A stretch of 64,000 nt of DNA from assembly GCF_900089075.1 (NCBI RefSeq), contig NZ_LT593746.1, forward strand, positions 494,920 through 558,919. Direction: 5' to 3'. The translations under genes and the position numbers were made by a program. Below are positions 43,867 through 47,059 of this stretch, piece by piece. The notes beneath the pieces were generated by a model, which saw only the letters and a program-made list of their open reading frames with translations, searched no databases and was not told where the DNA came from. The first letter of the stretch is position 1. Every line of letters starts with the position of its first letter. The stretch is from Vaginella massiliensis. Lineage in GTDB: Bacteria > Bacteroidota > Bacteroidia > Flavobacteriales > Weeksellaceae.

Positions 43867-43904
43867 CTAAAGTTTTATATCCTTTATGATTATTTCTTGA
43901 TGAA

Positions 43905-44816
43905 TTATTGGATTCTAGTAACTCCTTTATCATCTTTTACTCTCAAGAAATATACACCTTGAGACAGATTAGAAACGTTTACTTTACCGTTCAAGTCTAC
44001 TTTAGCTGGGATTACGCGTCCTGTAACGTCAGCGATTTCAACTTTTGCGATTTTAGAGTCTGCCAAAGATACATTCAATTCTGTAGATGCTGGATTAGGA
44101 TAAACACCTAATTTATTAGATCCTAACTCTACAAGTCCCATATCTGCAGTCGTACCGTTTACATGGAAAAGCATTGATTGCTCGAAACCTAATTCTGAGA
44201 TATTTGTAGGGTTGTCGTCCACACACTCTGTACCTGGCCAACCGATGTACGATGGACCTGTTTGTGGAGCTTCGTTGTTACCCAAGAAAAGACCATCAGT
44301 ATACGAAGATCCGTCAGAAGCTAATAGTACCGAAACCGCAACAGCTAATTTTTTGTTTGCTGGGAAAGAAACTTCGTCAAACAATGGAACATCTTGCCAT
44401 CCTGGAGCGTCGAATCCCATTGAACCATACGCATCTTCATTCAATCCTGCCAAAATAGACTCTGCATTGTAGTCTCCTTCAATTGCTGCAAATGCAAGTT
44501 CAACAGTGTTACTTGCTCCTTGTGGGTTTCCGTATACACCAACGCTTACTGGTGTGAAATCACTTGTAATACCGTATTCTGCAAAATCGAAAAGTCTAGA
44601 AAAGTGATTCGTAACTCCATTTGCATTTGAACATGATACCAAACTATTTCTAGTATTAGGATCAGTATATTGAATCAACTGATGCTCTCCTGCTACTCCA
44701 TTTGCTGGAGCAGTAGCAATCATTTCTTTGTTCGATTTTACTTCCTGAAGTTGAGCCATTTGCCCGAATGCAGCAGAAAATGCTACCGCTGATAAAAGTG
44801 TAAAGATTTTTTTCAT
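43905..44816 (-). CDS. Secreted T9SS cargo protein with shortened type A sorting domain
   Basis: The 303-residue protein has a signal peptide (to FSAAFGQ, about residue 19), a mature beta-rich region of unknown function (about 20-230) and a type A T9SS tail from LGVYPNPASTELNVSL onward. GVYFLRVKDDKGVTRIQ is the last visible part. The frame stops there (43905-43907), but reading past it gives FIKK and a second stop at 43890, the expected basic end of such tails. The last five residues therefore appear to be lost by a nonsense change. Cell-surface export may be impaired. No catalytic motif was recognised. Confidence 0.85.
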   Translation of the reverse strand: MKKIFTLLSAVAFSAAFGQMAQLQEVKSNKEMIATAPANGVAGEHQLIQYTDPNTRNSLVSCSNANGVTNHFSRLFDFAEYGITSDFTPVSVGVYGNPQGASNTVELAFAAIEGDYNAESILAGLNEDAYGSMGFDAPGWQDVPLFDEVSFPANKKLAVAVSVLLASDGSSYTDGLFLGNNEAPQTGPSYIGWPGTECVDDNPTNISELGFEQSMLFHVNGTTADMGLVELGSNKLGVYPNPASTELNVSLADSKIAKVEIADVTGRVIPAKVDLNGKVNVSNLSQGVYFLRVKDDKGVTRIQ

Positions 44817-44881
44817 AATTGTATGATTTTATAATTTTATAATTTTTTTACTAACTGAAAGCTAATGTAAACAAAAAGAAG

Positions 44882-44908
44882 CCGTCTCACAACTGAGGCG
44901 GTTTTTTT
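44882..44908 (+). terminator. Inward-facing terminator in the left IS end
   Basis: CCGTCTCA (44882-44889) pairs with TGAGGCGG (44894-44901) with one G-U pair, and seven T follow. It would stop plus-strand transcription entering the transposase gene from outside. Confidence 0.75.
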
Positions 44909-44981
44909 ATATAAATAATGGATTGATTATTAGGTGATTAATATAGAATTCACTATATTTAACTACTTAATTTTCAGCGAA

Positions 44982-46511
44982 ATGAACTATAGAATTAAAG
45001 AATATAACCAATCACAAAACTGGTTATTTCCACCTTCGATAGAAGAATTAATTCCGACTAATCATCCAGTAAGAATCGTAAACAACGTAGTTGAGAAGAT
45101 AGACTTAAAACCTCTTTTAGAAACTTACAGTCGGGAAGGTCATCCTAGTTATCATCCTAAAATGATGCTCAAAGTGATGGTTTACGCTTATATGGACAAT
45201 ATTTATTCCAGTAGAAAGATCGAAAAAGCCCTCAATGAGAACATAAACTTTATGTGGCTTTCTGGTAGAGAAAGCATCGACCATAATACGATAGCCCGAT
45301 TTCGAAGCAATAAGTTAAAAGCCGTATTCAAAGACATCTTCAAACAAGTGGTATTGCTTTTGGCAGAAGAAAAATTAGTGAGTCTCAAACGAGTTTATAC
45401 AGACGGCACCAAAATAGAATCGGTAGCTGGAAGATACACCTTTGTCTGGGGAAATTCCATCAAGACCAATCGGGAGAAAATGATCAAACAATTAGAGGAT
45501 ATGTGGCAATACGCGCAGTGCGTTGCTGATGAAGAAGACCAAGATCCCGAGCCACCGGAGTTCAAAAAACTTGATCCTGAAAAAGTCCAACAAGCTGCAG
45601 ATAAAATCAACCGAATCCTAAAAGAAAAGTCTGACGATCCAAAGAAAAAAGCCAAATCCCGTTACATCCAAAAGAATTTTGCGCCAAACTTAAAGAAATA
45701 CCAAGAACAAGAAAAGTTACTACAAGAACGCAACTCCTACAGCAAAACCGATCCCGATGCGACCTTTATGCGCATGAAGGACGACCACATGCAGAACGGA
45801 CAATTAAAACCCGGCTACAATGCACAAATCAGCACCGAAAACCAAATCATCGTCAACTATACCTTACATCAAGACACCAACGACATTCATACTTTAAAAC
45901 CTCATTTAGAAAACCATAAAAAACTCTACAATGAGCTTCCCGAAGAACTCACCGCAGATGCAGGATACGGAAGTGAAGAAAATTACGAACTTTTGGAGGA
46001 CAAAGCAATCAAAGCCTTTGTAAAGTTCAACACCTTTGACCAAGAACAAGGCAAATCAAAGAAAAGAAAAAATCCCAAACCCTTTGAACGAGACTCACTC
46101 TATTATAATGAAGCGCAAGATTTTTATGTATGCCCGATGGGACAACGTATGGACAAGCGCGGTGAGCGAAAAGTCCAAACAAAGTCAGGATATAAGCAAA
46201 CCTATAGTTGTTATAGCGCTAAAAACTGCAATGGATGTCCGCTCAGAAGCCAGTGCTTCAAGGGGAAAAACAACAGGACAGTAGAAAGGAACCATAAATT
46301 AGAATACCACAAACAAAAAGCAAGAGAACTTCTCACATCCGATATCGGAGAAATAAGAAGAAAACAAAGAACTGCTGATGTCGAACCTACATTTGCCCAA
46401 CTCAAACACAACCGAAACTTCAAAAGATTTACCCTAAAAGGAATTGAAAAAGTGGAATTAGAGTTCGGATTGCATGCTTTAGCTCATAATCTGAAAAAGA
46501 TGAGTGCGTAA
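44982..46511 (+). CDS. IS1182-family transposase
   Basis: The start MNYRIKEYNQSQNWLFPPSI at 44982 matches the usual N-terminus; an in-frame upstream ATG would add 16 residues. The 509-residue protein has the N-terminal DUF772 domain (HPSYHPKMMLKVMVYAYMDN, about residues 47-66) and a DDE domain with VYTDGTKIES and ELTADAGYGSEENYELL. A cysteine-rich insert (CYSAKNCNGCPLRSQC) and the C-terminal RRKQRTADVEPTFAQLKHNR carry the final acidic motif. The frame is complete, so the enzyme may be functional. Confidence 0.93.
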   Translation: MNYRIKEYNQSQNWLFPPSIEELIPTNHPVRIVNNVVEKIDLKPLLETYSREGHPSYHPKMMLKVMVYAYMDNIYSSRKIEKALNENINFMWLSGRESIDHNTIARFRSNKLKAVFKDIFKQVVLLLAEEKLVSLKRVYTDGTKIESVAGRYTFVWGNSIKTNREKMIKQLEDMWQYAQCVADEEDQDPEPPEFKKLDPEKVQQAADKINRILKEKSDDPKKKAKSRYIQKNFAPNLKKYQEQEKLLQERNSYSKTDPDATFMRMKDDHMQNGQLKPGYNAQISTENQIIVNYTLHQDTNDIHTLKPHLENHKKLYNELPEELTADAGYGSEENYELLEDKAIKAFVKFNTFDQEQGKSKKRKNPKPFERDSLYYNEAQDFYVCPMGQRMDKRGERKVQTKSGYKQTYSCYSAKNCNGCPLRSQCFKGKNNRTVERNHKLEYHKQKARELLTSDIGEIRRKQRTADVEPTFAQLKHNRNFKRFTLKGIEKVELEFGLHALAHNLKKMSA

Positions 46512-46582
46512 ACAAGAATAATAACTCATCTTTTTCTAAATTATTAAATTGAGTTGGTTTTTGACCTCAATTTTTTAATCAT

Positions 46583-46615
46583 AAAAAAACCGTCCCGATT
46601 TTATAAACGAGACGG
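46583..46615 (-). terminator. Inward-facing terminator in the right IS end
   Basis: CCGTCCCG (46590-46597) and CGAGACGG (46608-46615) form a stem with one wobble pair; on the minus strand seven T follow (46589-46583). It mirrors the left end and blocks antisense read-in. Confidence 0.7.
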
Positions 46616-46648
46616 CTTCTTTTGTTGTGAATTTTAACAATTCGACGC

Positions 46649-47059
46649 TTACACGAACTCGTTATAAGCAGATTTCAAATTTTCTGCGATGACTTCTGCA
46701 GAGTGCCCTTCGATATGATGACGCTCTAACATGTGCACCAATTCACCGTCTTTGAACAATGCCACGGCTGGCGAACTTGGCGGGAATGGAGCAAAATGTT
46801 CTCTTGCTTTTGCTACCGCATCTATATCGTAACCTGCAAATACGGTAGTGAGGTTGTTGGGTACTTTGTCGTTGTTCAACGATAAGATGACACCTGGTCT
46901 TGCTGCACCTGCTGCACAACCACAAACACTGTTGACTACTACCAAGGTGGTTCCTGGTCTTTGCAATGCTTCTTCTACTTTATCTGCTGTCGAAAGATCT
47001 TCGAAACCGTTTGAAGTGAGTTGCTCCTTCATCGGTAATACTATTTCTGATGGATACAT
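46649..47059 (-). CDS. BrxA/BrxB-family bacilliredoxin
   Basis: The 136-residue protein has the CGC motif at C46-G-C48 in VVNSVCGCAAGAARPGV, equivalent to the active site of Bacillus YphP/YqiW (BrxA/BrxB). Those proteins remove bacillithiol from oxidised protein thiols; in Bacteroidota the family is widespread and some members use bacillithiol. FAGYDIDAVAKAREHFAPFPPSSPAVALF follows in the usual order, positioned for the thioredoxin-like fold. The length is typical. The IS element sits 26 bases past its stop codon. Confidence 0.9.
   Translation of the reverse strand: MYPSEIVLPMKEQLTSNGFEDLSTADKVEEALQRPGTTLVVVNSVCGCAAGAARPGVILSLNNDKVPNNLTTVFAGYDIDAVAKAREHFAPFPPSSPAVALFKDGELVHMLERHHIEGHSAEVIAENLKSAYNEFV

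What the first reader, a model, noticed from the sequence alone, without database searches (positions are those of the whole stretch)
43890..43919. In-frame stop removes the last five residues of a T9SS sorting tail
The 303-residue cargo ends GVTRIQ then TAA (43907-43905). The next codons read F-I-K-K and a second stop (43892-43890). The intact protease in this window ends TITQKVLKE, which aligns residue for residue with TRIQ-x-FIKK, the stop falling where a lysine is expected. One base change AAA to TAA would explain it. The basic end of type A tails is conserved, so secretion may be reduced. It may be a recent nonsense mutation, a sequencing error, or a tolerated short tail.
Basis: partly seen in the sequence, partly recalled or inferred. 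Interest (0 to 1): 0.6.

Follow-up and report, generated by a model that had tools for sequence, protein, structure and literature searches.

The report
Secretion tag cut short by stop
In this Weeksella-group bacterium, a single-base change has put a stop codon on the key lysine of a protein's type IX export tag, so the protein is probably no longer secreted; it is an ordinary loss-of-function mutation, but it matches laboratory truncations of such tags.

Summary
The 303-aa gene (43905-44816, minus strand) ends GVTRIQ-TAA, then reads in frame TTC ATC AAG AAA TAA (FIKK-stop). All 11 full-length orthologues found, each from a different species and including Weeksella virosa, have AAA (lysine) at the stop codon's position and end KFIKK, KIIKK or KFI/VK. 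The stop is therefore a derived AAA-to-TAA change. The type A sorting-tail model (TIGR04183) scores 55.4 bits over its whole length if the stop is read through, but 48.8 bits without the end.

The 29 other strong tails in this genome all run 4-5 residues further, and 28 of 29 keep a lysine at this place. It corresponds to the near-invariant lysine (RemZ Lys1110) that contacts PorV in the translocon structures. Published truncations of 2 residues (RgpB) or 4 (PPAD) impair export, so loss of 5 most likely abolishes it. PorV, SprA and PorU are intact, and no tRNA gene with a TAA-reading anticodon was found.

New here: an IS1182-family element sits 61 bp upstream of the start codon, where most orthologues carry a promoter -33 box. 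The gene therefore carries two changes suggestive of decay. Not settled: sequencing error, strain frequency, and actual protein location.

The parts
43905..44816 (-). T9SS cargo gene of unknown passenger function, 303 codons plus TAA; N-terminus MKKIFTLLSAVAFSAAFGQ looks like a Sec signal peptide
   Evidence: ORF; Por_Secre_tail PF18962 1.2e-13, TIGR04183 5e-13; 11 full-length orthologues
43908..44105 (-). Truncated type A sorting domain (residues 238-303)
   Evidence: TIGR04183 positions 1-65 of 72, 48.8 bits; 1-72 with one TAA inside and 55.4 bits when read through
43905..43907 (-). Derived TAA stop at codon 304, where every orthologue has the lysine codon AAA
43893..43904 (-). Remnant of the tail end, TTC ATC AAG AAA (F-I-K-K), still in frame and untranslated
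43890..43892 (-). Original stop codon TAA, at the same position as in the orthologues that end in K-K
44878..46619 (+). IS1182-family insertion sequence, 1742 bp, one of 13 full-length copies in the genome, inserted between the brxA-like gene and the cargo gene, 61 bp upstream of the cargo start codon
   Evidence: transposase NF033551 2.5e-142; copies; ends GAAGCCGTCTC...GAGACGGCTTC defined by comparing copies
44817..44877 (-). Remaining 61 bp of cargo leader; keeps a -7-like TACATTAG, while the only TTG at a suitable distance (20 nt) lies in the IS end
   Evidence: orthologues L004 and L055-L059 have TTG-N18/19-TANNTTWR 66-70 nt before the start codon; L002 and L003 do not match the pattern
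46649..47059 (-). BrxA/BrxB-family bacilliredoxin gene, the conserved upstream neighbour of the cargo in orthologous loci
   Evidence: TIGR04191 3.4e-59; same coding end and terminator upstream of the cargo in L002-L003 and L055-L059
42797..43792 (-). asd (aspartate-semialdehyde dehydrogenase), downstream neighbour
   Evidence: TIGR01296 7.1e-129

Best explanation
A nonsense change (AAA to TAA) at codon 304 cuts the last five residues (K-F-I-K-K by comparison with orthologues) from the type A C-terminal sorting domain of a T9SS cargo. The loss removes the second half of the last beta-strand (beta-7) and, at its first position, the near-invariant lysine that touches PorV in the translocon. The protein should still cross the inner membrane by Sec, but the T9SS (present and apparently intact) should no longer accept it, so it would stay in the periplasm or be degraded. 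The gene also has an IS1182-family element in its promoter region. It is best read as a cargo gene in early decay. Shown: the stop, its derived state, which residues are lost, the intact machinery genes, and the IS. Inferred: loss of export and altered transcription.
For: Stop and in-frame remainder. Orthologues in 11 species (Algoriella, Empedobacter, Faecalibacter, Weeksella virosa and others) all have AAA at codon 304 and end KFIKK, KIIKK, KFIK or KFVK. Read-through raises the TIGR04183 match from 1-65 (48.8 bits) to 1-72 (55.4 bits). Only this tail of the 36 in the genome has a stop inside, and none of the roughly 150 best tails listed from 36 family genomes has one. Of the 29 best other tails here, 28 have lysine at -6 to -4 from the end and 25 at exactly -5; all that keep the GxY motif in register have 18-21 residues after it, against 14 here. 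The intact Algoriella orthologue's predicted tail (245-319) aligns end to end with translocon-bound RemA and RemZ CTDs (Z 8.9 and 8.3) and with mirolase's CTD ending KLIKK; its last strand is 311-318, against 299-302 in the window protein. RemZ Lys1110 is fifth from that chain's end (1114), as K304 would be. Two-residue truncation of RgpB leaves it in the periplasm, and four-residue deletion affects PPAD (PMC11285876). PorV, SprA and PorU are full length. None of the 57 tRNA genes found has anticodon TTA. IS insertion 61 bp upstream.
Against: No reads and no second strain could be examined. No secretion assay of this protein exists. A five-residue truncation was not tested on this particular CTD. 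Tolerance varies among cargoes: PPAD tolerates loss of two residues. The rest of the reading frame is undamaged, which would also fit a gene still under selection. The -7-like box is kept, and the IS end offers a TTG, so transcription may persist.
Confidence: 0.8

Rival explanations
1. The TAA is a sequencing or assembly error, or a rare variant of this one isolate; the species' gene is intact.
For: Only this one assembly of the species is available, and the gene is otherwise intact and conserved. The orthologous context CAA AAA is an A-run, where consensus errors are commoner.
Against: The difference is a substitution, not an indel. The assembly is 9 contigs with 13 full-length, nearly identical 1.7-kb IS copies resolved, which suggests a good long-read assembly (inference).
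Confidence: 0.12
2. The shortened tail is tolerated and the protein is still exported by the T9SS at useful levels.
For: Sixty-five of 72 model positions remain, well over the family cut-off. PPAD tolerates a two-residue deletion. Translocon contacts are mostly hydrophobic and plastic (PMC10994853).
Against: No other of the 29 best tails here lacks this segment. The lost lysine is almost invariant. RgpB fails after losing two residues, and PPAD is affected by loss of four.
Confidence: 0.07
3. The stop is read through, so some full-length protein is made.
For: The four codons beyond the stop and the second stop are still in frame.
Against: No ochre-suppressor tRNA among 57 tRNA genes. TAA followed by T is a strong termination context in well-studied bacteria (general knowledge). 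TAA is also the usual stop of the other tails.
Confidence: 0.02

Closest known systems
Type A T9SS C-terminal sorting domain (TIGR04183 / PF18962)
   Same: Scores over both curated cut-offs; has YPNP start, GxY motif and predicted beta-sandwich
   Different: Ends five residues early and lacks the terminal K-[FLIV]-[IV]-K-K segment with the near-invariant lysine
Engineered C-terminal truncations of RgpB and PPAD, and the tail-replacement mutant of PorU (P. gingivalis; PMC11285876)
   Same: Loss or replacement of the last residues of strand beta-7 of the CTD
   Different: Those were made in the laboratory and assayed; here the truncation is natural and larger than those of RgpB and PPAD (5 residues), and unassayed
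KLIKK-ending cargo tails (Tannerella forsythia; PDB 8QB1 mirolase CTD)
   Same: Orthologues of the window protein end KFIKK or KIIKK, aligned with KLIKK
   Different: The window protein has lost this end, and its passenger matches no peptidase family

Membership tests
Type A T9SS cargo (TIGR04183) | Match to the sorting-domain model over the curated cut-off | tested here: met
   48.8 bits against cut-off 23; PF18962 51.5 against 27
Type A T9SS cargo (TIGR04183) | Complete last strand ending in the basic K-x-[IV]-K-K-like segment | tested here: not met
   Stops after model position 65 of 72; 11 orthologues and the 29 best other tails keep the segment
Type A T9SS cargo (TIGR04183) | Near-invariant lysine close to the C-terminus that contacts PorV | tested here: not met
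   The stop codon replaces it; RemZ Lys1110 is equivalent by position from the end and by the ends of the fold alignment
Type A T9SS cargo (TIGR04183) | N-terminal Sec signal peptide | tested here: inconclusive
   MKKIFTLLSAVAFSAAFGQ has the form and is conserved in orthologues; no signal-peptide predictor was run
Type A T9SS cargo (TIGR04183) | Host genome encodes the T9SS (PorV, SprA, PorU) | tested here: met
   PorV 478.7 bits, SprA 2017.6, PorU 998, all over cut-off and without stops
Type A T9SS cargo (TIGR04183) | Secretion depends on the T9SS | not testable with these tools
   Needs a secretion assay
Pseudogene (inactivated by nonsense change) | Derived stop relative to orthologues in other species | tested here: met
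   AAA in 11 of 11 orthologues
Pseudogene (inactivated by nonsense change) | Loss of function or of selection | not testable with these tools
   Nearest orthologues are only 39-52% identical, too distant for a selection test; no second strain held

The most novel reading that the evidence does not exclude
The truncation was favoured rather than neutral: by losing the lysine and half of strand beta-7, the protein was converted from an exported cargo into a periplasmic resident, with expression retuned by the inserted IS element.
Probability: 0.05. Interest if true: 0.5.

Novelty: new member of a known kind. Interest (0 to 1): 0.3.

Why it matters
It is a natural counterpart of the laboratory truncations that defined the T9SS signal's C-terminal motif, with the stop on the lysine whose role is still unclear in the translocon structures. 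It also shows a cargo carrying two changes suggestive of early loss, a cut secretion tag and an IS in its leader, in a genome rich in that IS.

Tried and rejected
Chance in-frame FIKK after a stop: rejected. Orthologues ending at the same residue: rejected in 11 of 11. Ochre suppression: no TTA-anticodon tRNA found, though the tRNA list comes from an Rfam search whose first look scored 150 of 222 candidates. Tolerated short tails elsewhere in the genome: the 29 best other tails are all full; of six weaker ones, one (G000:C8:159110-159271) is also truncated but lies in a gene with a frameshift upstream, so it is a broken gene and not a precedent for a working short tail. Passenger function: no Pfam or NCBIfam family beyond the tail. 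The AlphaFold2 models are of middling confidence (mean pLDDT 57 and 62). Foldseek gives no PDB match at E 0.001 or better, and passenger matches by VIA-align 2 (Z about 7) are to assorted jelly-roll proteins and not informative. Dating the mutation: four sense codons are too few; roughly, neutral divergence above about a quarter would be needed before an intact remnant became unlikely (estimate, not a tool result). A literature search on tails cut by stop codons gave nothing directly on point. Nguyen et al. 2007 on RgpB is not held, so it is cited through PMC11285876.

Full report
Observation. On the minus strand, the 303-codon gene at 43905-44816 ends GGA GTT ACT AGA ATC CAA TAA, and the same frame continues TTC ATC AAG AAA TAA. 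A scan of 24,729 TAA triplets in the window and fetched loci finds only this site and one unrelated site followed by an aliphatic-or-Phe, aliphatic, K, K, stop pattern, so the remnant is not a chance string.

The tail family. The protein matches Por_Secre_tail PF18962 and the type A T9SS model TIGR04183, but only to model position 65 of 72 (48.8 bits). A search of the genome that reads through stops matches positions 1-72 at 55.4 bits with exactly one TAA inside. It is the only one of 36 tails in this genome with a stop inside. In 36 family genomes, none of the roughly 150 best tails listed has one.

Derived state. Orthologues were found in the same GTDB genus (G001 is the Weeksella virosa type strain, judged by its 2,272,954-bp contig; and G002) and in Algoriella, Empedobacter and Faecalibacter. 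Removing duplicates between collections leaves 11 full-length orthologues from 11 genomes, each representing a species. All have AAA at codon 304, followed by FIKK-stop, IIKK-stop, FIK-stop or FVK-stop. A more distant relative (L134) ends MSKIVKK. The body of the gene aligns throughout, with an intact conserved start MKKIFTLLS. The window sequence is thus the outlier, one base away from the shared state.

What is lost. The intact Algoriella orthologue was modelled from an alignment of window and the search for related loci sequences. Its tail (245-319) aligns to the last residue with CTDs of RemA (8gl6, Z 8.9), RemZ (8gl8, Z 8.3) and NucA (8glk) held in the F. johnsoniae translocon, and with the mirolase CTD (8qb1), whose last residues are KLIKK. 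The last strand spans 311-318 there, but only 299-302 in the window model; both models have moderate confidence. Lauber et al. report that type A CTDs share one conserved translocon-facing residue, an almost invariant, functionally important lysine close to the C-terminus (RemZ Lys1110), bonded to PorV in all their structures (PMC10994853). RemZ's chain ends at 1114, so this lysine is fifth from the end. The residue replaced by the stop here is also fifth from the end in the KFIKK and KIIKK orthologues. In this genome, 25 of the 29 best other tails have lysine exactly there and 28 have it within one position. Tails that keep the GxY motif in register have 18-21 residues after it, against 14 here.

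Expected consequence. In P. gingivalis, removing two residues (not one) from RgpB leaves the protein in the periplasm; replacing PorU's last six residues blocks its export; and removing four (not two) residues from PPAD affects secretion and attachment (PMC11285876). Loss of five residues including the conserved lysine should therefore stop export. The machinery itself is present: PorV, SprA and PorU are full length, so the effect would be specific to this cargo. No tRNA with anticodon TTA was found among 57 tRNA genes, so suppression is unlikely.

A second change. In the orthologous loci read, the cargo lies directly downstream of a BrxA/BrxB-type bacilliredoxin gene and a terminator-like hairpin. 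In the window, a 1742-bp IS1182-family element (44878-46619) sits between them, 61 bp before the cargo's start codon; its ends were defined by comparing the 13 full-length genomic copies. Six of the eight orthologues examined have a TTG-N18/19-TANNTTWR promoter-like pair 66-70 nt before the start. In the window the -7-like TACATTAG remains, but the sequence where the -33 box would lie is IS DNA, which happens to supply a TTG at 20 nt. Whether transcription survives is unknown. With the stop, this favours a gene in early decay. The genome holds at least one more decayed cargo, at G000:C8:159110-159271, frameshifted and with a cut tail.

Limits. No reads, no second strain of the species and no secretion data were available. 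A substitution in an assembly good enough to separate 13 nearly identical IS copies is more likely real than an error, but this is inference. The age of the mutation is poorly constrained. The passenger domain has no recognised family.

Verdict. The finding is confirmed and its interpretation is supported and sharpened. It is a cargo with a nonsense-truncated type A tail, most probably export-deficient. It is biologically ordinary, with some value as a natural test of the C-terminal lysine.

Noticed in passing
44878-46619: IS1182-family element with 13 full-length copies at 99-100% protein identity plus fragments. Most copies are flanked by a run of A on the left and a run of T on the right, and the ends look like terminator hairpins (GAAGCCGTCTC / GAGACGGCTTC), suggesting insertion at terminator-like sites.
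   Followed up: partly
44817-44900: Possible hybrid promoter: TTG in the IS end, 20 nt, then TACATTAG in the cargo leader; the IS replaced the native -33 region.
   Followed up: partly
L135 (G000:C8:158700-159600): Another broken T9SS cargo in the same genome: an upstream frameshift, and the sorting tail ends after LYLITLLMDV without the last strand.
   Followed up: partly
L021 and L022 (G000:C9:752653-752871 and 750885-751103): Two neighbouring cargo genes carry sorting tails whose last 40 residues are identical (ending GVYIVRTVDVNGNVNSYKVVKK), suggesting a recent duplication or conversion of the tail.
   Followed up: no
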